A stretch of DNA of 64,000 nt from Gammaproteobacteria bacterium (lineage in GTDB: Bacteria > Pseudomonadota > Gammaproteobacteria > SZUA-152), in assembly GCA_029882975.1 (NCBI GenBank), contig JAOUJW010000020.1:1-64000 (forward strand), in the 5' to 3' direction. The notes beneath the pieces are model-generated. The model ran no database searches. It worked only from the letters and a program-made list of their open reading frames with translations, and was not told the DNA's origin. Positions 1 through 30,086 of the stretch are shown here, piece by piece. The position numbers and the translations under genes are program-made. How positions within the stretch are numbered: position 1 is the stretch's first letter; each line of letters begins with the position of its first letter.

Positions 1-95
1 CTCTCTATACCGCTGAAGGCTCTCTATACCGCTGAAGGCTCTCTATACCGCTGAAGGCTCTCTATGCCGCTGAAGGCTCTCTATACCGCTGAAGG
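1..95. repeat. 19-bp tandem repeat, 5 copies, at the 3' end of trhP
   Basis: Five head-to-tail copies of a 19-bp unit (ctctctataccgctgaagg on the + strand) run from base 1 to 95. Copy four has one A-to-G change; the others are identical. The array is cut by the window edge, so the true copy number may be higher. Read on the minus strand, the first unit encodes the last residues and TAG stop of trhP, and every later copy lies beyond that stop. The unit length is not a multiple of three. There are no spacers, so this is not a CRISPR. Confidence 0.95.
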
Positions 96-1442
96 CTCTT
101 TTTTCGCCAAAAGAGCCATACCATTGTCCCCTTCCGGTAGGACAATTTTCACTTCGTAACCGCTGCCTAATGCCTCTTGCAACGGAGCTCCGTGCATATC
201 CAACATGTGCTCCAGCACGAATTCGCGGTTACCATCGGGTCGAATCACTTCTATTTCATCCCCCAAACACAGTTTGTTTTTAACCGCCACGTGAGCCATT
301 CTGCTGCCGGCGTCGTAATCCAGCACTTCACCCACAAAGCGCTGTTTACCGGTATTGGAGTAATTCTCCAGATAGTTTTGATACTCCTGGTCTGCATGGC
401 GTTGATAGAATCCATCCGTATAGCCCCGGTTAGAAAGATTTTCCAACTGTGACCACAATAGCGGGTTGAAAGGCCGACCGGCCACCGCATCATCTATCGC
501 TTGGCGATACACTTGGGCAGTCCGGGCAACATAATAATGAGACTTGGTCCGTCCTTCGATTTTGAGGCAATCCACACCCATTTCCACCAAACGATGAATA
601 TAGTGTACAGCGCGCAGATCTTTTGAATTCATTATATAGGTGCCGTGTTCATCTTCCATGACGGGCATATACTGTCCCGGCCGGTTCGCTTCCTCAATAA
701 GATACGTGGCATCCGCCAAAGGATGACGCGCTTGCGGCTTCTCTTCGAATTGCGGAGCCGGTGCTTGCATCTGTGCCATAAAATCCACATTGAGTTTCTG
801 GACATCATGACAGTCGTCGGTTTCACCGCTATGTAGATTGTACTGCCAACGGCAGGCGTTGGTGCAGGTTCCTTGGTTTGGGTCTCTATGATTAAAATAC
901 CCGGATAACAAACAACGCCCCGAATAGGCTACACATAACGCGCCGTGGACAAACACCTCCAATTCCACATCAGGACATAGTTGGCGAATCTCCGCGATCT
1001 CATCAAAGGACAACTCTCTGGACAATATGATTCGAGTCAGCCCCAATGACGCCCAGAAACGCACAGCCGCATAGTTCACCGTATTGGCTTGTACAGACAA
1101 ATGAACAGGCATGTCCGGCCAGGTTTCGCGGATCATTAAAATCAAACCCGGATCGGCCATGATCAAAGCATCCGGTTGCATCGCAATAACCGGCGCCATG
1201 TCGCCTAAATAGGTTTTGACTTTGGCATTGTGCGGCATAATATTACTGGCCACATAAAACTTTTTCCCATGGGAATGGGCGTACTCAATACCCAAACCCA
1301 GGTTTTCCATGGTAAAACTGTTGTTTCGTACTCGCAAGCTGTAGCGCGGCTGCCCCGCATATACGGCATCGGCACCGAACGTAAAAGCATATTTCATGTG
1401 CTTAATGCTGCCCGCAGGGGAAAGAAGTTCTGGAACTTTCAT
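81..1442 (-). CDS. trhP: tRNA 5-hydroxyuridine synthesis protein TrhP (YegQ), peptidase U32 family
   Basis: A 453-residue U32-family protein, the same length as E. coli YegQ/TrhP, which takes part in prephenate-dependent 5-hydroxyuridine formation at the tRNA wobble position in the cytoplasm. The N-terminus reads MKVPELLSPAGS. The family signatures GADAVYAGQPRYSLRVRNN, LSVQAN, FVHGALC, GRCLLSGY and GTCTNACRWQY supply the conserved cysteines, and EDEHGTYIMNSKDLRA and LKIEGRTKS follow. An upstream in-frame GTG at 1472 would add 10 residues without matching the family, so the ATG at 1442 is preferred. The last codons and stop fall inside the tandem repeat at 1-95, so the C-terminal residues (KEPSAV) are repeat-derived. 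It is a single gene, separated from the upstream EAL gene by about 80 bp. Confidence 0.93.
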   Translation of the reverse strand: MKVPELLSPAGSIKHMKYAFTFGADAVYAGQPRYSLRVRNNSFTMENLGLGIEYAHSHGKKFYVASNIMPHNAKVKTYLGDMAPVIAMQPDALIMADPGLILMIRETWPDMPVHLSVQANTVNYAAVRFWASLGLTRIILSRELSFDEIAEIRQLCPDVELEVFVHGALCVAYSGRCLLSGYFNHRDPNQGTCTNACRWQYNLHSGETDDCHDVQKLNVDFMAQMQAPAPQFEEKPQARHPLADATYLIEEANRPGQYMPVMEDEHGTYIMNSKDLRAVHYIHRLVEMGVDCLKIEGRTKSHYYVARTAQVYRQAIDDAVAGRPFNPLLWSQLENLSNRGYTDGFYQRHADQEYQNYLENYSNTGKQRFVGEVLDYDAGSRMAHVAVKNKLCLGDEIEVIRPDGNREFVLEHMLDMHGAPLQEALGSGYEVKIVLPEGDNGMALLAKKEPSAV

Positions 1443-8682: not shown

Positions 8683-9429
8683 TTAGCGCCCGAAAACTTT
8701 CTTTAGCAAATCCGTCGTCCGAGCCAAAGGCTCGGTTCGAATTTTTTTCTCCTGAACCGCAATTTTCGTAAACAACCCGTCCAGGGTTTTCTCCGTTACA
8801 TACGCATCAATATCCGGCAAGTCTTTGGATAGAAAAGGATTGATTTTTTTCGCACGTTTTACCAATTTCTTGTATTTGGCAGTGACACCCGTCTGCCTAG
8901 TCGCATTTTGGACGATAGGGGAAATCAGTATGCGTAAACGAGCGCCCTTTTTTTCCCGAAAATACTCTGTGGCTTCATTATCTTTGCCTTTTAAAATACG
9001 CAAAGCATCACTCACCGTCATTGCCTGAATGGCATCCGCAAAAACCTTAAACGTGGTTGTCACCGCCGACTCCGCCGCCCGGTTCATGGTTTTCACAAAA
9101 TCATCCGCCAGTTTTTCCTGCCCCAGCTTGCGCAACAGCTTTTCCGCTTTCTTCAGCTTTTCAGGCATTAAAATTTTCACACTGGCATCAGCAAAAAAAC
9201 CATTATTTTTGCCCAAAACATCAACGGATTTACGTGCGCCAATATGTAAGGCTTGTTTCAATGCCTGGCTCACTTCTTTTTCACTGAGTGCAGCGGGTTT
9301 ATTACGAACGGTTTCTTTAACGTCTTTAACTTCCTTTTTTACGCTATCAACCAAATCGCGCCACCCGGCATTGGCATCCATGGCAAACCATATCCCAAAG
9401 ATCACGAACAACACCCGAACCGACACCAT
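8683..9429 (-). CDS. DUF4197 family exported protein
   Basis: A 248-residue protein with a signal peptide (about 1-21, ending near DANAGW) and the helical DUF4197 domain: ALSEKEVSQALKQAL, GARKSV, FFADASVKILMPEKL, FVKTMNRAAE, then the C-terminal DGLFTKIAVQEKKIR. Proteins of this family are periplasmic and of unknown function. GGAGGA lies 5 nt before the ATG at 9429; an ATG at 9441 has no such site, so 9429 is chosen. It converges with parA and diverges from the pfa cluster, 137 bp from pfaE. Confidence 0.8.
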   Translation of the reverse strand: MVSVRVLFVIFGIWFAMDANAGWRDLVDSVKKEVKDVKETVRNKPAALSEKEVSQALKQALHIGARKSVDVLGKNNGFFADASVKILMPEKLKKAEKLLRKLGQEKLADDFVKTMNRAAESAVTTTFKVFADAIQAMTVSDALRILKGKDNEATEYFREKKGARLRILISPIVQNATRQTGVTAKYKKLVKRAKKINPFLSKDLPDIDAYVTEKTLDGLFTKIAVQEKKIRTEPLARTTDLLKKVFGR

Positions 9430-9566
9430 TGAGTCCTCCATTTATCCAGTTAAGCGCAGCACAGACGTCGGGCTGCAATTCGCGGGCCACCCCTACCACA
9501 CATGAGCGGCTCCCATTCCAACAACAGCAATGGTAAACTGGGTGTTTTCGATGCAACACCAACCCT

Positions 9567-10274
9567 ATGGTCAAACTACTCCGTCTAAAGCATTTTCCGC
9601 CCCCGCTATTGGAAAATGCTATCCATGTGTTCACTACCCAGATCACCGATCTGGCGCAGGAACCCCGGTTAAGTCAATACCTCAATGAAACAGAACAACA
9701 ACGTGCCGCGCGCTTCTTAAATCCGGAACACGGTCGACGTTTTTCGCAGGTACGAGGATTATTACGAATGTGGCTCGGCACTTATTTGCAACAAAGCCCG
9801 CAAAGCGTTCAATTTAATTACAACCGCTACGGCCAACCTTCGGTGTCAGACAAGGACCGGCAAACACCCTTGTATTTCAATATTTCCCACTCCGGTGATA
9901 TGGCAGCGTTTATATTTGGCACTGTAAGAGTCGGTATTGATGTTGAACAGCACAAACCCATGAAAAACCTGAACGGCATGAGCCGTTACATATCCCACCC
10001 GAAAGAATTGGCTGAATTTGAACAATTGGATGAGGAAGCCGCGTACACTGCGTTTTTTCGTCTCTGGACCCGCAAGGAGGCTTACATAAAAGCCAACGGA
10101 CAAGGCCTCAGTATGGGTTTACGTTCCATATATATTGGCACACAGCGCGAGCCGGAAAGCCGGGTTGAATACAAGGACCGCATCCAATCCAATTGGCTTA
10201 TAAAAGATTTGGCAATTCCCAGCACAAACGGTTTACCCTACCAACTGGCTGTAGCCATAGAACACAACATCTGA
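9567..10274 (+). CDS. pfaE: 4'-phosphopantetheinyl transferase of the Pfa cluster
   Basis: A 235-residue Sfp-type transferase. It attaches phosphopantetheine from CoA to the carrier-domain serines of the synthase. The Mg-binding motif GIDVEQHKP (D125, E127) and the second motif WTRKEAYIKANGQG (E171, K170) are present, together with an upstream FNISHSGD segment. The gene comes first in a co-oriented cluster with pfaD, pfaA and pfaC. About 220 bp separate it from pfaD, so it may have its own or a shared promoter. PfaE is essential for PUFA synthesis in known systems. The likely substrates here are the three ACP domains of PfaA. Confidence 0.92.
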   Translation: MVKLLRLKHFPPPLLENAIHVFTTQITDLAQEPRLSQYLNETEQQRAARFLNPEHGRRFSQVRGLLRMWLGTYLQQSPQSVQFNYNRYGQPSVSDKDRQTPLYFNISHSGDMAAFIFGTVRVGIDVEQHKPMKNLNGMSRYISHPKELAEFEQLDEEAAYTAFFRLWTRKEAYIKANGQGLSMGLRSIYIGTQREPESRVEYKDRIQSNWLIKDLAIPSTNGLPYQLAVAIEHNI

Positions 10275-10498
10275 TCACTTTCCACCCACACTACGGATAC
10301 TGACAGCTTCACCGTATGCAAAATGTAAACACACAGCACCAAAACGTCTTATGCAAAGTACCGTAAGGATGAAACGCATTAGTGTGACCACCGCTTCCAA
10401 GCGATTAAGGTATTTACAGTATTGTTACCGCTCTTACTCTTCCCAATGATACCGTTGTTGAGTTATTGTTGCGCTACATTAGTGAGCATTTGTTTGAT

Positions 10499-12142
10499 AT
10501 GCATAAGCAGTTAGATCATCCCCAAGCCCTGCCCTCCGGCGTTGCGACTTTAGAGGAACCCGCGTTTACTCCTTCGGCTTTGATTCAGTGTGCCAGGCGT
10601 TTTCGACAAAGCTGTTGCGTGTTACAGGACGTACACAGTGGACACATGGGGGCCGCCTTATTGCGCCAATCCAGTGAAACAGGTTTTTCTAACGTGCAGA
10701 CAGGTGCGCAAGATCGCTTTCAAACCTTGGGGCTTTTACCACCGTTGTATCCGGAATGGCTGGGAGATCGTTCCTTTAACGAGTTTCACAACGTACGTTT
10801 CCCCTATATCGCCGGGGAAATGGCCCAAGGTATTGCCTCCACCGATATGGTGATAGCTATGGCGCAGGCCAATATGCTGGCAATACTGGGGTCAGGAGGA
10901 ATGGAGCTACACAAAATGGAACACAGCATTAAAACTTTAACAACCGCATTGGGCCCGAAAAAACCCTGGGGAGTGAACCTTATTCATTCGCCGCAAGAAT
11001 CTTACATGGAACAACAAGCGGTTGACTGTTTTCTGACGCATCGGGTCCATACCGTTTCTGCTTCAGCCTTCATGCGTTTGAATGAGCACATTGTACGCTA
11101 TGCTTGCAGCGGGCTGCACCGCGATCCATCCGGCAAACTGGTAAAACCCAACAAAGTGATCGCCAAAATATCCAGACCGGAAGTCGCATCGCAATTCATG
11201 TCTCCCGCACCGGATGTACTGCTTAGTAAATTACTGAAAAAAGGCTTGATCACTCACGCGGAAGCCACCTTAGCTCGAACCATTCCTATCGCCGAAGACA
11301 TTACGGTGGAAGCCGACTCCGGCGGACACACAGATAATCGGCCCTTGACCAGCCTACTGCCCACAGTAGCCCTACTGCGCGATGAACTGACACAACGTTA
11401 CGGCTACAGTACAAACATTCGCATCGGTGCAGCCGGCGGTATCGGTACCCCGACCGCAGCTGCCGCTGCATTCAGCCTGGGAGCCGCTTACATTGTAACC
11501 GGCTCCATCAATCAATCTTGCCGTGAAGCAGCTCAATCCGATTTGGTTAAACAAATATTGGCCCGGCAAGGCATAGCGGATGTCGCCATGGCACCGGCAG
11601 CAGATATGTTTGAAATGGGTGTAAAACTACAGGTGGCGAAGTGCGGCTCTTTATTTGCACCACGGGCCCTAAAGCTGTATGACTTATATCGCAGATACAA
11701 CAGCCTGGAAGAACTTCCTGAAAAAGCTGTGGTCGACTTAGAGCAAAATATCTTTCGTTGCACGTTACAAGACGTTTGGCAACACACACAAGCATTTTGG
11801 CAACAGCGCCATCCCGATACATTAAGCAAAGCGTTACAAGATCCAAAATTTAAAATGGCATTGGTGTTTCGTTGGTACCTCGGTAAAAGCTCCCACTGGG
11901 CCAGACGTGGGGATATCAACCGGCAAACAGACTTCCAAATATGGAGCGGTCCTGCCATGGGCGCTTTCAATCAATGGTGTAAGCACTCTTTTCTGGAACA
12001 CCCGGAGAACCGCACCGTTACACAAGTCGCCTACAACCTGATGGAAGGAGCGGCGGCAATTACCCGAGCCCACCAACTGCGCTGCTATGGGGTCCCCATG
12101 CCGGCACAATCCTACCAATCCGATCCCGTAGAATTAAAGTAG
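10499..12142 (+). CDS. pfaD: PfaD-type enoyl reductase
   Basis: An FMN-dependent TIM-barrel protein of the 2-nitropropane dioxygenase type (547 aa), the trans-acting enoyl reductase of PUFA synthases. Typical PfaD segments are the NVRFPYIAGEMAQGI region, GILGSGG-like MLAILGSGGMELHKME, WGVNLIHSP, the ADSGGHTDNRP motif and the FMN phosphate-binding GAAGGIGTPTAAAAAFSLGA. A TTG at 10466 would add 11 residues; the ATG at 10499 gives an N-terminus matching the family (PSGVATLEEP near the start). The gene lies upstream of pfaA, as in myxobacterial pfa1-pfa2-pfa3 clusters, not at the end as in Shewanella. Confidence 0.93.
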   Translation: MHKQLDHPQALPSGVATLEEPAFTPSALIQCARRFRQSCCVLQDVHSGHMGAALLRQSSETGFSNVQTGAQDRFQTLGLLPPLYPEWLGDRSFNEFHNVRFPYIAGEMAQGIASTDMVIAMAQANMLAILGSGGMELHKMEHSIKTLTTALGPKKPWGVNLIHSPQESYMEQQAVDCFLTHRVHTVSASAFMRLNEHIVRYACSGLHRDPSGKLVKPNKVIAKISRPEVASQFMSPAPDVLLSKLLKKGLITHAEATLARTIPIAEDITVEADSGGHTDNRPLTSLLPTVALLRDELTQRYGYSTNIRIGAAGGIGTPTAAAAAFSLGAAYIVTGSINQSCREAAQSDLVKQILARQGIADVAMAPAADMFEMGVKLQVAKCGSLFAPRALKLYDLYRRYNSLEELPEKAVVDLEQNIFRCTLQDVWQHTQAFWQQRHPDTLSKALQDPKFKMALVFRWYLGKSSHWARRGDINRQTDFQIWSGPAMGAFNQWCKHSFLEHPENRTVTQVAYNLMEGAAAITRAHQLRCYGVPMPAQSYQSDPVELK

Positions 12143-12186
12143 TATCGAGAAAATGTAACAGTAGAGCTTACGCATTAGCACATCTG

Positions 12187-12192
12187 TATAAT
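12187..12192 (+). promoter_or_regulatory. possible -10 element upstream of pfaA
   Basis: A perfect TATAAT lies 32 bp before the pfaA start codon in the 81-bp gap after pfaD. No good -35 element is seen 17 bp upstream, so this is only a weak promoter candidate. Confidence 0.3.
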
Positions 12193-12223
12193 CCAATAAA
12201 TGTAGAGAACCGCAGGCACAAAC

Positions 12224-19110
<6,887 letters not shown>

Positions 19111-19114
<4 letters not shown>

Positions 19115-22100
19115 TCAATGCTGTTGCCATCGTCGGCCGCGGTTGTGTACTACCGCAAGCCCTGAATGTGGAACAATTCAGGCAGTTTGTATTCGCAGGA
19201 GAATCTTCGCTGAGTCCGGCCAGTGCTCAACAATGGGACGCCCTGTTGCATAGAGTGCTACTGCCACTATCGGACTATAGAACCGATGTCACCTATTCCG
19301 GCATCGGCTCCCGAGTACAGGGCTTCGACTTTAGCGATCAGGGTTTACTCCTGTCACAACAGCAGTTACAGCAGTGCCTCAGCGCCGACCCGATAAACCA
19401 CTGGCTTATTGATGCCGGTCGCCAGGCCTTAACCGATTGCGGCTTCAACGACTTCTCCACCCTACCCGCAACCGGCGTGGTGATGGGAAACCTGTCTTAC
19501 CCAACGCAGGGACATAATTTTTTGTCCATGCAATACTGGCTTAAACAACAAGACCCCTTTTTACAAGAAGCACTTGCCCCGCTGCTGCAACAACCCATGC
19601 AGCACCGGGACCGTTTTTCCACCGGCCTACCGATCGCCACCATGGCTAAAGCCCTTGGCTGTACCGGCGGCAGCATGGCCTTGGATGCGGCCTGCGCCTC
19701 CAGCCTGTATGCCATCAAATACGCCTGCGATGAATTGCAGTCGGGTAGAAGGGATTTTATGTTGGCCGGGGCGGTGAATCACGCGGACAATTTGTTTCTG
19801 CATATCGGTTTTGCCGCTCTGGGTGCTTTGAGTAAAAGCGGCCACAGCCGCCCTTTTCAAACCGAAGCGGATGGACTCATCCCTGCCGAAGGCTGTGTGG
19901 TGTTTGCCCTTTGCCGGGTGGAGGAAGCGTTACGCCGTGGTCTGCACATACACGGACTTATCCGCGGCGTGGGGTTGTCTAACGACGGAAATCGCGGTGG
20001 TTTTTTGAACCCATCCCGACAAGGCCAACTGGCCGCCATGAAAAACGCGTATCGTATGTCGGGAGTAGATCCGGGTATTGTCTCCCTGCTCGAATGCCAC
20101 GCCACCGGTACACCCGTCGGTGACACAGTAGAGTTGCAAAGTATCAGACAATTCTTTAAACCTAAAAAACCCATACATATAGGCGCCTTGAAAGCCAATA
20201 TGGGACACTTAGTCACAGCTGCAGGCGGCGCGGGGCTACTGAAACTGCTCTTTGCCATGGAACAACGTACTATCCCCCCCACACCCGTTAGCGGCACACT
20301 GTTGGATGAGCTGCACTCAGGTCACTTATTGCTGAATCAAACCAGTGAGCCATGGGAAAGCGAAACACCATTCACTGCCGCTATCAATGCCTTCGGGTTC
20401 GGCGGAAACAATGCGCACTTGCTGTTGCAACAATGGCCCCGGAACCCAGGCAGTGATTCCGGCTTTGCATCCGCGAAACCACCGGCACTTCAAAGGGAAA
20501 AAACCGTAGCCATTACCCAAGTCGTTGTTCGTAACGGCACCGCCGGCACATCGGACTTCGTCAAACATCTATTCAACGCCGCAGAACCAGTAACACTCAA
20601 TCAAAAAGTGGAACAGTTTCAGCTGGACTTGACTCGCCTGGGCACCCCACCCAAAGATTTGCAACAGGCCCTGGGTCAACAATTAATGGTATTGCTCGCC
20701 ACGCTGGAGGCGGTAGATGGCCTGAACTTAATTCCCGAACGTAGCGCCATCTATGTGGGCATGGGCTGCGATACCGAAGTCAGCCGGCATAACGGCCGCT
20801 GGCGACTGCAATCGTATTTGGAAAAACATCTGGACACCGCAGTGGATGAGCACTGGCTGCAGCAGGCATGTGACGCCTTTATGCGACCCTGTGATGCATC
20901 ACGCGTGGTGGGAGCCATGCCCAACATCAGCGCCAACCGAATCAGCCAATTGCTCGACCTACAGGCTGGCGCTATCACGATAGGCGCCGAGGAAAACTCA
21001 GGGCCTGCCGCTCTGCAGCTGGCCCAAAATGCTTTACTCAATCACGAAGTGGATGTAGCGATTGTGGCCGCAGTGGATTTGAGTTGCGAACCCTTGCACC
21101 AGGAAACAGCAGCAAAACTGCTGCCGTCCAACCGACAAACCCCGGCGGATGCTGCAGTGGTGTTGGTGTTGCAACGCAGTGAAGACAGTAAATCCGGCAT
21201 TGCCGTACTCAGTACTTCCGTAGATGCAGACACAACGCAATTGAAATTGGAATTGGGCCCCACCCATCCCGGTTTGAGTGCCCGCTTTGGCCATGCCCAC
21301 GCCGCTTCGGGATTGTTACATGTAGCGGCCGCAGCCATGGCTCTAAAACATGGTGCCATTCCCAATGTCGATGCCGCTGCCATCCCCTGGTTGCCCGGCC
21401 CCAAACCCCGCAGCGCCTTGGTTCGAGTCACCGACCTGGGAGGCGAAACCCGTCAAGTGGTGTTGCGTGAATGGCAAGGACATACCATCACCGGTACATC
21501 CACACAAACACAAGGCTACGACCCCAGCCAACTTCAACTACATTACTATGCTGCACAAAACCAAGCGGAGCTCCTGCAGCGACTGAAGCATCGAATCCAC
21601 GGAGGCCAGGGGCCGGTGAAGCTGGCCTTTTGCAGTGATGCCGGCAATCCCGAATTGACAGCCGAACGACAACACCAACAGCTAACCCAAGCCTTAATCC
21701 ACGGTGGCATCGAGCAGCTGCCCCACTGTCATTTTTCCACCAAAACCATCCATGGCGAAATTGCCATGGTTTATAATGGCACTGCCGCTGCCTATGCAGG
21801 GATGGGCCGGGAATTGTTTTTGGCTGTACCTCAGCTGGCAAGCATGATGGCGCAACGCACACAGTCCTTAAATGCCTACCCACATTGTCTGGACCCGCGC
21901 ACGCCAATGTCGCAGTTGTCCTCCATGGATCTTATTTTCTCCAGCACGCTGTTCAGTCTACTCCATTCCCACTGGACCATGGGAATCGCTCAAATCCAAC
22001 CACAGGCAGCTATTGGTATTAGCGCCGGCGAATCCAACGCCTTGTTTGCCTTGGGCGCATGGGACGATCTTGATGTGATATTTCAACGCATTCATGACAG

Positions 22101-25100
22101 CGATTTTTACGGCTCGGCACTGGGTGCACCGTATCAAATAGTGAGTGACGCATGGCGCCGGGCCGGGTTGAGTCAGGCCGCAGAATCGGTGAGCTTCGGC
22201 TCTTGGCGCGTATTGCATTCGGTCGTTGAGTTGGAAAAGTGGATTGCCGATAAAATTCCCTTAATACGCATCACCATTATTCATACCGCAAACGATTGCA
22301 TTATTTCCGGTGACAAACAAAGCTGCCTGACACTGATTCGCCACCATAAGCTCAATGCGGCACCTTTGGTATTTACCCTGTCAGTACACACACCGGACAC
22401 TCAATCCTATTACCAGGGCTGGTATGAACTGCATAATCTCAAAACAACACCCGTACCCGGGGTGCGCTTTTATACCCATGCAGGCAATCGCGCCTATAAA
22501 CCAACCAGAAAAAGCGCGGCCGCAGCCATTGCCCAACAAGGGGTGAACCCGGTAGACTTTCCAGCGACCGTGCATCAAGCCTACAAAGACGGATGCCGAA
22601 TTTTCATTGAACACGGTCCGCGTAATTTGTGCAGCCAATGGCTGGACACTATCCTGGTAGACAAACCGCATGTTTGCGTTCCACTGGACGTGCCCGGCAC
22701 CAACTCCCTGTATCAAGCCCTAAGTGCCATTGGGCAGTTATGGAGCATCGGCGTACCGCTGGATATAGAAGCGGTGTGTAATGCGTTACCCACCCCTCTC
22801 AAACAACAGGATGACAGCAGCGAGGACCTGCGTACCCGCATTAGTGTTGCGGCACACCCCCCTGCCGTGATACTTCCACCCATGCCTCTGTCGCCCACAA
22901 CCGCAACAAAACCAACTGCCATTCCTGAATCGGTCAGCGCCCTATTCATGCAACCTGCTCCCATATTACCACCCACGAGCACATACCCGGATTCGGCAAT
23001 CGCTGCCGCCAGTGCACCCACATCCGCACAAACACAAACACAAACACAAACACAAACACAAACACAAACAGTCGACATAAGAAAAACGCTGCTACAACAA
23101 ATCAATCACATGCATACTCAATACTTACGTGGGATGCAAGCAGCGGCAACTGACTTAACCCAGTCCACGCGCTCCTATCTTAATCTGCTGCAAACCCAGC
23201 CCCGGTCTGGGCAACAGGTGAAGTCTCCAGGCGCAGCAAAGACTATTACCGAACCAACACCAACACCAACACCAACACCAACACCAACACCAACACTGGA
23301 CGCCACAAAACCCGGAGAATCCGCAACCGGGTCGCGGCCCATAGCGGCGCTACCCGGGCCCAAGTTCAATCGCGAACAATTGGAAATACTGGCCGCGGGG
23401 GAAATTTCATCCGTTTTCGGCGAAATATTCCAACAACAGGACTCCTACATGCGCCAGGTGCGCATGCCCATGCCACCTTTATTACTGGCAGATCGTGTAA
23501 CCGGCATAGACGCCGAAGCCGGAAGCATGAAAACCGGCACCATCTGGACGGAGACTGACATTCACGAGGACTCCTGGTATCTACACCACGGGCGCATCCC
23601 CGCCGGTATTATGGTGGAGTCGGGACAGGCTGACCTGTTACTGATCTCCTACCTTGGTGTGGATTTCATTAACCAGGACCAACGGGTATACCGTCTATTG
23701 GGCTGCGAACTTACATTTCACGACCGCTTGGGCCAAGCCGGTGAAACCTTACAGTTTGACATTCACATCAACGGCCATGCGGTTCACGCCGGCGTGCGCT
23801 TGTTTTTTTTCCACTATGATTGTCACATTAACCAAAGCCTGCACATGAGCGTACGCCATGGTCAGGCCGGTTTTTTTACCGACCGGGAATTGCAAGAATC
23901 CGAAGGTGTGTTGTGGTCTCCAAAAGATATACTCTGGGATAAAAACTCAAACCACGATGAAGCCTTGATATCAGACTACAAACACTGTTTAAGCACAGAA
24001 GAACTACAACACTTTGCCCAAGGCAAAGTGGCGGAATGTTTTGGTCCAGCCTACGCGCGCGCCAACACACACACTCGCAGCCCTGCAATCCCGTCGGGCA
24101 AAATGCGTCTACTGGACCGTGTCACCCATATCGACCACGAAGGAGGCCCCTGTGGCCGCGGCTATTTACGAGCAGAATTGGACTTAAAACCGGACCACTG
24201 GTTTTATCAAGGACACTTTAAAAACGATCCTTGCATGCCCGGCACATTGATGGCTGAAGGTTGTTTACAAGCTATGGCGATATACCTCAGCAGTCTGGGT
24301 TACACACTGGACAAGGATGGCTGGCGGTTTGAACCACTGCCGGAAAGACCTTTTAAACTGAGCTGCAGAGGCCAGGCAACACCGAGCAGTCGACTGCTAA
24401 GTTATGAAATATTTGTCACACGCGCTGACCGTCAGGGCAAGCCTTATCTCATCGCCGATGTACTTTGCAGTGTTGATGGCAAAAAAGCCTTCCATGGGCA
24501 AGGCATGGCCCTGGGTCTAAGTCCCGGCTGGCCCATTGAGTCCACCTTAGACCTGAACATGGAAACCAAACTCGAATCCGATTCAAGCACACCCCGCCTC
24601 ACCGCTGCCCGGAGCGGTGATGTAAGGGCTGACGCAGCCGCCATTCTCAATTGCGCTTTAGGCAAACCTTCCGCTGCCTTCGGGTCCGCTTATGACTATT
24701 TCGATGCAACGGGTATACCCGTACCCCGACTACCCGCTCCCCCGTATTTATGTATTACCGAGTTAACCCAAATTCCACCCTCGCCCGGTTCATTGGCAGC
24801 CGGTGGTGTCGTTGAAGCGCAATTCCACATTGACCCGCACGCCTGGTATTTTCAGGCCAATCCAGCCGCCGTTATGCCGTACTGCATACTATTGGAAGCG
24901 GCCTTGCAGCCCTGTGGCTGGTTGGCCTCTTATTGCATCGCCGGCACTCGAGAAACCGCTCTGTGTTTTCGCAATCTTGATGGTAGCGGTACCGTGTTGG
25001 GAGAGGTGCACCAAGATAAAGGCACACTCACAACCCGCGTGAAACAAACACAATACTCAGAATCGTCCGGCATGATTATTGTCGCTTTTGACGTAAAATG

Positions 25101-27936
25101 TCATCAACAAAATCAGCCCATTTATGAACTGCAAACCGTTTTCGGTTTTTTCCCGCCCCATACCCTGTTAAAACAACAAGGCGTGGGAGAAGACCCCGAG
25201 CTTAAACAACTGCTACAGGCCAAGCAAAGCAACTGGGATCCTGTGGACCTGCAATGTGAACCATTACGCTATTTTGACGGCCCATGCGCGCTACCGCGCA
25301 AACCCCTGTTGATGCTGGACCGTATCACCGGATTTTGGGACCAAGGTGGTCGCCATGGTTTGGGCGCACTACGCAGCGAAAAACAGGTAAACAGCAGCGA
25401 GTGGTTTTTTAAAGCCCATTTCTTTCAAGACCCGGTTCAACCCGGCTCACTGGGACTGGAAGCCATGTTGCAGTTGTTACAGTTTTACATGTTACACACT
25501 AAAATGCATCAAGGATTCAAAGCTCCGCGTTTTCAAGCCATTACCTTGAACCAAACCATGTCCTGGAAGTATCGCGGTCAAGTAATACCGGAGAATCAAC
25601 GAATCCATATTACAATGGAAATCACTGCAAAAAATACCATAGAACAAGGAGTCACTGTCAACGCGGATGCTTCTCTTTGGGTAGACGGACTGCGTATCTA
25701 TCACGCCACTAACCTGGGCATGAGCATAGTCGAAACCACCACTGCGAACAGTCACCATACAGACTTACCCAAGAAAGAAAAAGCCCAAACAACTGCAGCA
25801 AAAGTAACTGACAGCAGCAGCATCACAACGGTGCACACGGTAGTTAACCCGCATCAGGAAACGTGGCTGAAGGACCACAAACCCACCTACTGTGCTTCCA
25901 CCATGCCCTTAATGAGCATATTGGATCTCATTGGTTCAGCCGCAGCGCAGTGGAAACAACGGCCGCTTGTGGGTGTGGAGGAACTACAGGTTTTTCGCTG
26001 GTTGTTGTGTGATCGAGAGCGGCACCTAAGCATTCGATTGCAGCATTCGCAACCCCTATCGTCCGAATCAATGCAACCCAATTTACAACAACAAGATAGC
26101 TCCTTCGTGGCTGCAAAGCTTTTCACACTGGACAACGACGACCAGGGCACCGAACTCATCGCCCAGGCCCGATTAAGGTTGGCGCCCCAGTGGCCTCAGG
26201 CCCCGGCGGCCTTGCCGCCCCTGTGTGAAACCATACCAAGGAACAATCCCTATGCTGAGGGACACTTGTTCCACGGCCCGGCGTTTCACTACCTCACCGC
26301 TTTGTATATTAACTCCGAGGGCAGCAGCGCCCTCATTGATATTGACGCCGGCAATGTATCCTTCGGCAGTTTAAATCAAGGACTCTTGGATACCGCACTG
26401 CATTTTATACCAAATGACCGCATCTTTCTTTGGTGCGGCGACCACAGCAAAGAACGTGTGGCTTATCCGGTCCGCCTTAGAGATCTGCAATTTTTCCAAG
26501 CCCCACCACGTCACGGGCAATTGCGGGGGGAAGCTCGCTTTGCGGGGTTGAAACAAGCGCTGCTTTGCACTCGAGTACAACTGATCTATAACAACAAGGT
26601 ATGGATGCAATGCATCATCGAATCGGCTCTGATGCCGATGGAAGCGTTAAATCGGCAAGGACCCGTCAAAAGACGCGAATTCCTCCGCGATCTTACCTTT
26701 GTTGAGAATCTACGTTACAGCCATCCAGATAATCATAGCGAGGGATGTAATGACAAAAAGGAAAGTATTAACACACAGTATAGCCACCTGACATGCAGCG
26801 AGTTAAAAAACATTACCTGGCTACACGGAACCATCGAAAAAATATTTAACACGCCTGAGTCCCAGCCGCAATTATGTGAAATTGTTACCGCCAAGGAACA
26901 TATCGCCCATCAAATCAAGATTCATCCGGCCTACATACGCATAGACTTAGAACATTCCCAAGCGCAGTGCCCTCAATACCCCCTCACAACGTTTCCACTA
27001 CACCTGAAACGCAGGGGTGCTCGGGTCAGCGTGTGTAATGGCGAAGCCATTCAATGGAATCAACAACGTTTAAGCCAATTCTGGCATCAACACTGGCACC
27101 TCCAAGACACCGCGGTTGAAAATATCCTGTGGGCATTACTGCAGCAAACTCAAGTCTTTTTGCGCCTAAGTGAAAGCGAACAAAAGTACCGCTGCCCGAC
27201 TTTATACGTCTGCGACTTCAACGACGCACAGGATAATGTGGCAGCCTTGTGTTTTACCATTGGCATGAACGTGATCAGCGAGACACCCTTGGCGTTCAAA
27301 GCCCACCGAAAACACCACATTCATTGGGCCACTAAACTGTTACAGTTATGCTATCAGTATCCGCAAATACAGCTGCCACCGCTACACAGCCACTGCCTTG
27401 CAAGAGACAAAGTTGCAATACGACATCACGCAACAACCTTATTCCAACAAGCGACCAGCATAGCCCTGCCGGCCTCTGACCCAGACCTAAACCTGTATTT
27501 TAATCTGGCACAAGAGCAGCAATGGGCTGTTGTGCCCGTTAGTTTCACTGCGATGAACCCCCTCAGCAACCTCGCCACCGCTCAGAGCCGTTGGCACTGT
27601 TGTGTAGGCAGCCCTACAAACGCCGCAACTGCTACGCTTACAAAAGTATTCAAACAACACTACATTAGCAACTGGGAATACGTCGATAGCCCTGACGGGT
27701 TTATTCAACTGGCATCAAAAGCAGACAATTGGGTGAAGCAATACCCGTGTGACCGACCCTATGCCGCACTGGCTGTGACCTTACTGGAAACGGCACCGGG
27801 AAAACTGCACCCGCACTTGTTACAATTACTGAACGGTAAGCCGCTAAAACAGATAGCACCCAAGGAGAAGTACTTTTACAACACCCTGCGAGACTTCTTT
27901 TTTAAAAGTACCGCCATCGAGCCTGAGTTATCCTAA
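19111..27936 (+). CDS. pfaC: PfaC-type synthase with integrated acyltransferase (KS-CLF-AT-DH-DH-DH'-degenerate AGPAT)
   Basis: A 2941-residue protein whose ATG overlaps the pfaA stop (ATGA). KS at 1-430, with Cys195, His330 and His366. Chain-length factor at about 470-790, where GAEENSG (near 627) replaces the KS nucleophile. Acyltransferase at about 880-1200, with Ser971 in GISAGES, equivalent to PfaB. A linker carries (QT)7 and (PT)7. FabA-type hotdog domains follow: HHGRIPAGIMVESGQADL near 1494, GHFKNDPCMPGTLMAEG near 1698, a degenerate one near 1911 (NPAAVMPYCILLEAALQ), and AHFFQDPVQPGSLGLEAM near 2100. A PKS-type DH (about 2240-2540) has His2256 and Asp2427. The C-terminal 340 residues align by eye with the AGPAT domain of myxobacterial Pfa3, but the HX4D-like and EGTR-like motifs are gone. 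It is probably the dehydratase and chain-length partner of PfaA. Confidence 0.93.
23029..23070 (+). repeat. hexanucleotide microsatellite (CAAACA)7 in pfaC
   Basis: Seven perfect copies of CAAACA encode (Gln-Thr)7, residues 1307-1320, in the linker between the acyltransferase and the first FabA-type dehydratase. Confidence 0.95.
23254..23295 (+). repeat. hexanucleotide microsatellite (CCAACA)7 in pfaC
   Basis: Seven perfect copies of CCAACA encode (Pro-Thr)7, residues 1382-1395, in the same inter-domain linker as the QT tract, about 180 bp downstream of it. Both arrays have seven hexamers that differ by one base. Confidence 0.95.
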
Positions 27937-29579: not shown

Positions 29580-30086
29580 ATGCACAGAATAAGATGGCTG
29601 TATATTCTCATTGGTTGTTTATTTAGCGGAAAATCAAAAGACCCTCTGGCGGTTGAAACATGCACCTTCTGGATTACTCCTTTTGATGTTGAGTTTGCAA
29701 GCGCATTTTCCCATACCTACTTTTCCTTCCAGGCTCTGGGTCGTTGGAAACATATAATTAAGAATTTTCCAATGCGCCGCCTAATTCGGGAAGCATGGTC
29801 ACCTTACACCTATGCAGAGATCATTCGGTTCCAACGCGCCATGAAATTGTTTTCAAAAGTACAGGTGGTCACCGGATTGTACTATTGGGATGAAAAGATG
29901 ATTTATTATGAACACAGAACAATCATAAACGGTGAACTTGCTGCCCGTGGATTTTCCAGAGGCGCCATGTGGAGTCGCAAAGGACGTGTCAACCCCTACA
30001 ATTTAGTAGACTTAGGGCCTTATAAAGGAGACATACCGGAAGTCGTAGTGAATTGGTGTAAAACTGACGATGCTATTAAAGAATAA
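29580..30086 (+). CDS. hotdog-fold thioesterase-like protein (4HBT_2 type)
   Basis: A 168-residue protein with a hydrophobic N-terminal segment (about 5-16), then a domain resembling THEM6-like/4HBT_2 acyl-CoA thioesterases: FWITPFDVEFASAFSHTYFSF at the usual position of the first strand and long helix, and VTGLYYWDEKMIYYEHR for the central strands. Family members hydrolyse or bind acyl thioesters. The Asp expected in the helix-turn region is not obvious, so activity is uncertain. It lies 1.6 kb downstream of the PUFA synthase, which makes a role in product release thinkable but unproven. Confidence 0.6.
   Translation: MHRIRWLYILIGCLFSGKSKDPLAVETCTFWITPFDVEFASAFSHTYFSFQALGRWKHIIKNFPMRRLIREAWSPYTYAEIIRFQRAMKLFSKVQVVTGLYYWDEKMIYYEHRTIINGELAARGFSRGAMWSRKGRVNPYNLVDLGPYKGDIPEVVVNWCKTDDAIKE

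What the first reader, a model, noticed from the sequence alone, without database searches (positions are those of the whole stretch)
9567..27936. Myxobacteria-like PUFA synthase cluster in a gammaproteobacterial setting
Gene order is pfaE-pfaD-pfaA-pfaC, with the PfaB-type acyltransferase (Ser971, GISAGES) built into PfaC and an extra PKS-type dehydratase after the FabA-like ones. This matches the pfa1-pfa2-pfa3 type known from myxobacteria, not the pfaA-B-C-D type of Shewanella and relatives. The surrounding genes are gammaproteobacterial, so horizontal transfer or a deep separate lineage is likely. Only three carrier domains are present, and the product may differ from EPA or DHA.
Basis: partly seen in the sequence, partly recalled or inferred. 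Interest (0 to 1): 0.75.

Follow-up and report, generated by a model that had tools for sequence, protein, structure and literature searches.

The report
Type-L PUFA synthase with decayed AGPAT
A gammaproteobacterium carries a complete gene set for making polyunsaturated fatty acids of a known soil-bacterium type (type L), unusual in that the domain thought to hand the finished fatty acid to a membrane lipid has decayed beyond working order, which suggests that another domain does the final step.

Summary
At 9567-27936 there is a complete pfaE-pfaD-pfaA-pfaC cluster in one direction. PfaC (true start 19111, 2941 aa) carries a PfaB-type acyltransferase (Ser971), FabA-type dehydratases and a PKS-type dehydratase (DH4). 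This is the "type L"/pfa1-2-3 architecture.

KS trees put PfaA and PfaC outside the classic marine clade (Moritella PfaC as anchor; no Shewanella or Photobacterium sequence was available). Nearest is the gammaproteobacterial MAG UBA6915, then a planctomycete. Grouping with Minicystis/Sorangium is rejected (p 0.005), so the cluster is myxobacteria-like but not a copy from those producers.

Type L in gammaproteobacteria is not new: Saccharophagus was listed in 2011, and I found several more.

Both catalytic motifs are gone. UBA6915 and the planctomycete lack the domain.

Across 85 PfaC proteins the PfaB-type AT and an intact AGPAT almost never go missing together (1 observed, about 10 expected; p at most 0.005 on the tree). 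I propose that they are alternative chain-release domains and that this enzyme uses the AT. The product is probably a C20-C22 PUFA; its identity is not predictable.

The parts
9567..10274 (+). pfaE, 4'-phosphopantetheinyl transferase (Sfp/HetI type), 235 aa; activates the carrier domains
   Evidence: PF01648 E 3.4e-19; HetI-type model 130 bits, below that model's equivalog cut-off
10466..12142 (+). pfaD (= pfa1), enoyl reductase, 558 aa (TTG start as called; an in-frame ATG lies at codon 12)
   Evidence: TIGR02814 634.5 bits, cut-off 449; 52-57% identical to UBA6915 and Minicystis Pfa1
12224..19114 (+). pfaA (= pfa2), 2296 aa: KS-MAT-ACP-ACP-ACP-KR-DH1
   Evidence: TIGR02813 1392 bits, cut-off 1010; Pfam domains; HMM architecture
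15767..16664 (+). three tandem carrier domains of PfaA (LGIDSI at residues 1214, 1311, 1433)
   Evidence: HMM hits
18236..19093 (+). PfaA C-terminal PKS-type dehydratase (DH1); catalytic Asp of the second half replaced by Glu (LLEGCLQL)
   Evidence: alignment with 11 relatives, all of which have Asp there; PS-DH E 9.5e-10
19111..27936 (+). pfaC (= pfa3), 2941 aa from ATG 19111: KS-CLF-AT-4 FabA-type hot-dog units-DH4-degenerate AGPAT
19111..19114 (+). ATGA overlap of the pfaC start with the pfaA stop (translational coupling inferred)
19111..21510 (+). KS-CLF didomain of PfaC (active KS DAACASS at residue 192)
   Evidence: Moritella PfaC KS-CLF structure 6riw matched at E 5e-97
21748..22935 (+). 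PfaB-type acyltransferase domain within PfaC; Ser971 at 22021-22023, catalytic His in SVHTPD
   Evidence: S. baltica PfaB 9ry8 E 4e-13; Ser/His alignment
23338..25740 (+). two pairs of FabA-type hot-dog domains; active motifs HFKNDPCMPG (residue 1702) and HFFQDPVQPG (residue 2103)
   Evidence: PF07977 E 4.6e-95, 3 stretches
25813..26610 (+). DH4, PKS-type dehydratase homologous to Minicystis DH4; His (DHKPTY) and Asp (LLDTALH) kept
26803..27933 (+). degenerate AGPAT (PlsC-like) domain: NHQVxxES and EGTR motifs both lost
   Evidence: profile built without the window scores it 30 bits against 270-546 for motif-bearing relatives; alignments; no Pfam Acyltransferase hit; model's best PDB match is PlsC 5kym
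17100..17156 (+). in-frame (AAC) repeat coding for an Asn/Ser run before the PfaA KR
23027..23070 (+). perfect in-frame hexamer repeat (QT)n in the AT-DH linker of PfaC
23253..23296 (+). perfect in-frame hexamer repeat (TP)n in the AT-DH linker of PfaC

Best explanation
The cluster encodes a complete iterative PUFA synthase of type L (pfa1-pfa2-pfa3 kind). PfaE primes three carrier domains on PfaA. PfaA and PfaC condense malonyl units (two KS, one CLF). KR, DH1, the FabA-type DH/isomerase pairs, DH4 and the PfaD enoyl reductase decide at each round between saturation and a cis double bond. The finished chain is taken off the carrier by the PfaB-type acyltransferase of PfaC (Ser971), because the C-terminal AGPAT domain, proposed in myxobacteria to place the chain on lysophosphatidate, has lost both catalytic motifs and is a non-catalytic relic. 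A separate PlsC then puts the fatty acid into phospholipid. The lineage (window + UBA6915 + an Isosphaeraceae MAG) is old, outside the marine pfaA-B-C-D clade and not derived from the Minicystis/Sorangium group. Shown: genes, domains, catalytic residues, motif loss, tree position, AT/AGPAT pattern. Inferred: activity, release by the AT, product class (C20-C22 PUFA; DH4 argues for fewer double bonds than DHA).
For: Family models above curated cut-offs. Catalytic residues present in KS (both), MAT, ACP (three), KR, FabA-type DH, DH4 and the PfaC AT. The AT matches crystallised PfaB, which is reported to be the terminal, product-determining acyltransferase of marine PUFA synthases (PMC12895367). 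AGPAT motifs lost in the window although the domain is still recognisable; nearest relatives UBA6915 and Isosphaeraceae L033 end after DH4 with no AGPAT. In 85 PfaC proteins: AT only 46 (window included, its AGPAT scored as absent), both 19, AGPAT only 19, neither 1; Fisher p 1e-7 without correction; 0 to 0.5% of trait simulations on the tree give so few double losses; at least 10 changes of AT and 9 of AGPAT. KS trees: window + UBA6915 100/99 (PfaA) and 99 (PfaC), + Isosphaeraceae 97/94 and 99; Moritella-type clade apart. AU tests reject a clade with Minicystis/Sorangium (p 0.005) and with the marine type (p 0.046, marginal). DH4 inserted into the Aetherobacter synthase shifts its product from DHA-type to EPA/n-3 DPA (PMC6731297).
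Against: No product data. The DH1 catalytic Asp is Glu, so full function is not certain. One complete cluster (L185) has neither AT nor AGPAT in the cluster or about 13 kb around, and the reduced cluster L151 also lacks both, so other release routes exist. PfaB-type ATs might set chain length rather than release the chain. The decayed domain might have acquired a structural role. The tree has long branches and only one experimentally known marine anchor (Moritella PfaC); PfaA had none of its own.
Confidence: 0.72

Rival explanations
1. Direct horizontal transfer of a myxobacterial PUFA cluster into this gammaproteobacterium.
For: Same gene order and nearly the same domain order as Minicystis and Sorangium; GC 50-54% against 44-50% in the flanks; absent from the sampled members of the same family.
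Against: Window is not nested in Myxococcota in either KS tree; a clade with Minicystis, Sorangium and kin is rejected, AU p 0.005; only 36-49% identity to Minicystis over long stretches.
Confidence: 0.1
2. Old presence in Gammaproteobacteria with many losses (vertical inheritance), no transfer into this genus.
For: Nearest relative UBA6915 lies in the same class and is about as diverged as expected for an old split.
Against: Gammaproteobacterial type-L clusters fall in several places; one clade is rejected at p 0.029. The sister of window + UBA6915 is a planctomycete. Absent from sampled relatives in the family.
Confidence: 0.3
3. The AGPAT-like tail is still an active acyltransferase with shifted catalytic residues, so release is by transfer to lysophosphatidate as proposed for myxobacteria.
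For: The region is an open, full-length domain with recognisable flanking motifs and a confident fold in parts (mean pLDDT 76).
Against: No His anywhere in the motif-I region; EGTR and about 8-13 residues around it deleted; sister lineages lack the domain.
Confidence: 0.08
4. The cluster does not make a PUFA but another long-chain fatty acyl product (secondary lipid) because of the DH1 change and DH4.
For: Products of most type-L clusters are unknown (PMC3098273); DH1 Asp to Glu; DH domains determine product (PMC6731297).
Against: Both FabA-type DH/isomerase motifs, which give the cis double bonds, are intact; Asp/Glu are interchangeable in the wider hot-dog dehydratase superfamily (own knowledge).
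Confidence: 0.25

Closest known systems
Type L secondary lipid synthases (Shulse and Allen 2011, PMC3098273; members listed: Saccharophagus degradans, Sorangium, Plesiocystis, Streptomyces, Nakamurella)
   Same: pfaD at the 5' end, then pfaA, then a fused pfaBC
   Different: Here pfaE heads the same run of genes and the AGPAT-like tail is decayed
Minicystis rosea pfa1-pfa2-pfa3 (AA/DTA-type; PMC6731297, PMC8436480; locus L068)
   Same: Same gene order; Pfa3 KS-CLF-AT-DH2-DH3-DH4-AGPAT; three carrier domains by the same HMM
   Different: 36-49% identity; intact AGPAT (NHQVAVES, EGTR); Pfa2 DH1 with Asp; separate branch of the KS trees
Aetherobacter pfa1-pfa2-pfa3 (DPA/DHA-type; PMC6731297, PMC4882568)
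   Same: Gene order, AT within Pfa3
   Different: Reported without DH4 and with intact AGPAT; pfaE at another locus; sequence not tested here
UBA6915 cluster (MAG, DKAX01000033; L032 + L160)
   Same: Nearest relative in both KS trees; pfaD-pfaA-pfaC; AT and DH4
   Different: PfaC ends after DH4, no AGPAT; pfaA broken into several frames in the MAG
Marine pfaA-B-C-D (types A/B; Moritella PfaC 6riw, S. baltica PfaB 9ry8)
   Same: Homologous KS-CLF (34% identity) and AT
   Different: AT is a separate protein PfaB, pfaD last, no DH4, no AGPAT; window lies outside this clade

Membership tests
Type L (Shulse and Allen 2011) | pfaD (ER) homologue at the 5' end of the cluster, before pfaA | tested here: met
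   pfaD 10466-12142, pfaA 12224-19114
Type L (Shulse and Allen 2011) | fused pfaBC: AT domain in the same protein as KS-CLF-DH2 | tested here: met
   AT with Ser971 in PfaC, matched to PfaB structure; the 2011 text writes the domain order as KS-CLF-DH2-AT, here it is KS-CLF-AT-DH
Type L (Shulse and Allen 2011) | KS phylogeny with type L | tested here: met
   Groups with Sorangium, Streptomyces and kin against Moritella-type; position within is a separate deep branch
Myxobacterial pfa1-2-3 (PMC4882568, PMC8436480) | C-terminal AGPAT domain in Pfa3, called its most characteristic feature | tested here: not met
   Domain present only as a relic without NHQxxxES and EGTR
Myxobacterial pfa1-2-3 | pfaE at a separate locus (reported for Aetherobacter and So ce56) | tested here: not met
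   pfaE 9567-10274 directly precedes pfaD
Myxobacterial pfa1-2-3 | DH4 as in Minicystis (not in Aetherobacter) | tested here: met
   DH4 with His and Asp
Marine types A/B (pfaA-B-C-D) | separate pfaB gene, pfaD after pfaC, KS in that clade | tested here: not met
   No pfaB gene; pfaD first; trees
PUFA synthase in function | production of methylene-interrupted PUFA | not testable with these tools
   needs FAME analysis

The most novel reading that the evidence does not exclude
In type-L PUFA synthases the PfaB-type AT and the AGPAT domain are two interchangeable exits for the finished chain; a cluster must keep at least one. This window is a snapshot of one exit (AGPAT) decaying while the other (AT) is kept, and its sisters have finished the loss. 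The identity of the exit may decide whether the chain leaves as an acyl thioester or directly as phosphatidate.
Probability: 0.45. Interest if true: 0.55.

Novelty: new variant of a known kind. Interest (0 to 1): 0.38.

Why it matters
How bacterial PUFA synthases let go of their product is an open question: an AGPAT domain, a thioesterase and, since 2026, PfaB have each been proposed. A natural enzyme in which AGPAT is dead and the AT is intact, together with a pattern of mutual cover in 85 clusters, makes that question directly testable by domain knock-outs. It also widens the taxonomic range of AGPAT-bearing clusters, described as confined to myxobacteria, to Planctomycetota, Acidobacteriota, Mycobacterium, Desulfobacterota and Proteobacteria. 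The cluster itself is an additional, not a startling, source of PUFA genes.

Tried and rejected
- Marine reference PfaA/PfaB clusters: a class-wide search for PfaB and a search of another order found no Shewanella-type cluster; Moritella PfaC (6riw) and two anonymous relatives of it (L148, L149) served as the marine anchor instead.
- A locus of E. coli could not be used as the centre of a genome search.
- Thioesterase 29580-30086 (4HBT_2) as the release enzyme: rejected as part of the cluster, because a further unrelated gene frame and about 1.6 kb lie between and no relative carries it next to its cluster.
- Promoter/terminator scans around the cluster gave nothing above shuffles.
- Insertion-site test with flanking genes: DUF4197 has no counterpart in 8 relatives, and the phosphatidylserine decarboxylase-like gene only distant paralogues, so no empty site could be shown.
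- A strict either/or rule for AT and AGPAT: rejected after one complete exception, L185; the pattern is strong, not absolute.
- Desulfobacterales, L038 and L087 AGPATs have NHQxxxES but an altered EGTR (EGRL, EGAM, EGQL); they were scored as present, which is a judgement. L038 and L087 lack the AT, so scoring them as dead would add two exceptions.
- The pair-wise independence test on supported branches alone had too few pairs.
- One search repeated the KS-CLF search on AT-less genomes instead of the intended PfaB search; a stand-alone PfaB elsewhere in those genomes was therefore not excluded.

Full report
What is there. Four genes lie head to tail on the + strand: pfaE 9567-10274, pfaD 10466-12142, pfaA 12224-19114, pfaC 19111-27936. 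PfaD and PfaA score above the curated cut-offs of their families. PfaA is KS-MAT-ACPx3-KR-DH1. PfaC is KS-CLF-AT-(FabA-type hot-dog)x4-DH4-tail.

Catalytic residues. Both KS cysteines, the MAT serine, three carrier serines, the KR tyrosine, the two active FabA-type motifs and the DH4 His/Asp are present. The PfaC AT keeps Ser971 and the His of SVHTPD and is homologous to the crystallised S. baltica PfaB, E 4e-13. One deviation: the DH1 Asp conserved in all 11 aligned relatives is Glu here.

The tail. The region after DH4 aligns with the AGPAT domain of Minicystis, Sorangium and others. Pfam finds the acyltransferase domain in those (25-40 bits) but not in the window. A profile built without the window gives it 30 bits, against 270-546 for motif-bearing relatives. 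NHQVAVES has become a stretch with no histidine, and EGTR with its surroundings is missing. The AlphaFold model (pLDDT 76, pTM 0.79) has LPA acyltransferase PlsC 5kym as its only convincing PDB match, but weakly: E 0.008, probability 0.97, TM 0.28/0.39. The alignment given to AlphaFold held intact AGPATs, so this is not independent evidence. In UBA6915 the rest of PfaC lies on another contig and stops after DH4; in the Isosphaeraceae MAG L033, DH4 is a separate frame and no AGPAT follows. Decay and then loss within this branch is the simplest reading.

Relatives. A scan of 84,980 genomes with the PfaC KS-CLF found at least 545 coding stretches; the best 80 span Myxococcota, Planctomycetota, Acidobacteriota, Desulfobacterota, Actinomycetota and Proteobacteria. 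Gene order pfaD-pfaA-pfaC is the rule among them. In a sample of 369 genomes of the window's class, the window and four others (G056, G036, G027, G254) score high; two of these, G036 and G027, have split or reduced genes. In the window's own family, 22 relatives including one of the same genus show no type-L PfaA; two have other PfaA-like synthases. Several of these are incomplete MAGs.

Trees. PfaA KS (45 rows, careful search): window + UBA6915 100/99, + Isosphaeraceae 97/94. PfaC KS-CLF (71 rows, quick search): 99 and 99, with Moritella and its two relatives in a clade of their own at 100. AU tests: window + UBA6915 with the marine type p 0.046, marginal; with Minicystis/Sorangium and kin p 0.005; all gammaproteobacterial type-L rows as one clade p 0.029. 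These groups were partly chosen after seeing the trees, and long branches are present, so the p values are indicative.

AT and AGPAT. In 71 complete PfaC proteins from the first samples, none lacked both domains. A further sample of Myxococcota brought one exception, L185, with neither in the cluster or about 13 kb around. Together, after removal of one duplicate: AT only 46, both 19, AGPAT only 19, neither 1, in 85 rows; the window is counted as AT only. About 10 double losses would be expected. Simulations of each trait on the tree give as few as observed in 0 to 0.5% of runs under five rate settings. At least 10 changes of AT and 9 of AGPAT are needed. The review of 2016 states that AGPAT occurs only in myxobacterial type L (PMC4882568); here it is seen in many phyla. 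I found no statement of the mutual cover in the papers I could search, but the library lacks most subscription journals, including the original Aetherobacter paper.

How it most likely works. Loading, elongation and double-bond formation as in known PUFA synthases (established for the family, PMC6731297). Release by the AT: inferred from its intact catalytic pair, the dead AGPAT, the pattern above and the finding that PfaB is the terminal acyltransferase in Moritella and Shewanella (PMC12895367). Product: a C20-C22 PUFA is likely; since adding DH4 to the Aetherobacter enzyme gives EPA and n-3 DPA instead of DHA-type products (PMC6731297), DHA as main product is less likely. The DH1 change may move this further. 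None of this is measured.

What is known. The type was defined in 2011 as type L, with the gammaproteobacterium Saccharophagus degradans among its members (PMC3098273), and synteny with Tahibacter, also a gammaproteobacterium (own knowledge), was reported in 2021 (PMC8436480). So neither the type nor its gammaproteobacterial host is new. New as far as I can tell are the AGPAT relic, the pfaE-first arrangement, the branch window + UBA6915 + planctomycete, and the AT/AGPAT pattern.

Origin. GC is 50-54% over most of pfaA-pfaC against 44-50% in the flanks, and the cluster is patchy. This fits acquisition but does not prove it; no empty site could be shown. The nearest sequences are too distant (47-57%) for a recent transfer from any sampled lineage.

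Noticed in passing
window 18236-19093 (PfaA DH1): Catalytic Asp replaced by Glu and HxxxG changed; unique among 12 aligned sequences.
   Followed up: partly
window 17100-17156, 23027-23070, 23253-23296: Three in-frame simple repeats (AAC and two perfect hexamers, 7 copies each) in linkers of PfaA and PfaC; they can change linker length without shifting the frame.
   Followed up: partly
G000:C6, locus L028 3886-12384: A second, unrelated 1860-aa KS-AT-DH-KR synthase with its own PPTase gene 5' of it in the same genome; product unknown.
   Followed up: no
L148 and L149 (G139, G239): Gammaproteobacterial clusters ordered pfaA-pfaC(with PfaB-type AT)-pfaD whose KS-CLF is 46-48% identical to Moritella PfaC: marine-type KS with a fused PfaB.
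   Followed up: partly
L185 (G974:C1, 203-209 kb): Complete pfaD-pfaA-pfaC with neither PfaB-type AT nor AGPAT nearby: the single complete exception to the AT/AGPAT pattern.
   Followed up: partly
L151 (G027:C11): Reduced cluster split over five genes, without FabA-type dehydratases, AT or AGPAT; very long branch, may make something else.
   Followed up: no
L083 (Bauldia MAG) 9813-10802: A second, independently decayed AGPAT tail (RGGDGP, no EGTR) in a PfaC that also keeps the AT.
   Followed up: partly
L059: Record titled Klebsiella pneumoniae carries a type-L cluster that groups with a proteobacterial MAG; the title is probably a mislabelled MAG.
   Followed up: no
window 8683-9441: DUF4197 gene next to the cluster, with no counterpart in 8 sampled relatives of the family.
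   Followed up: partly
window 1-99: 19-bp unit repeated 5.2 times at 97% identity.
   Followed up: no
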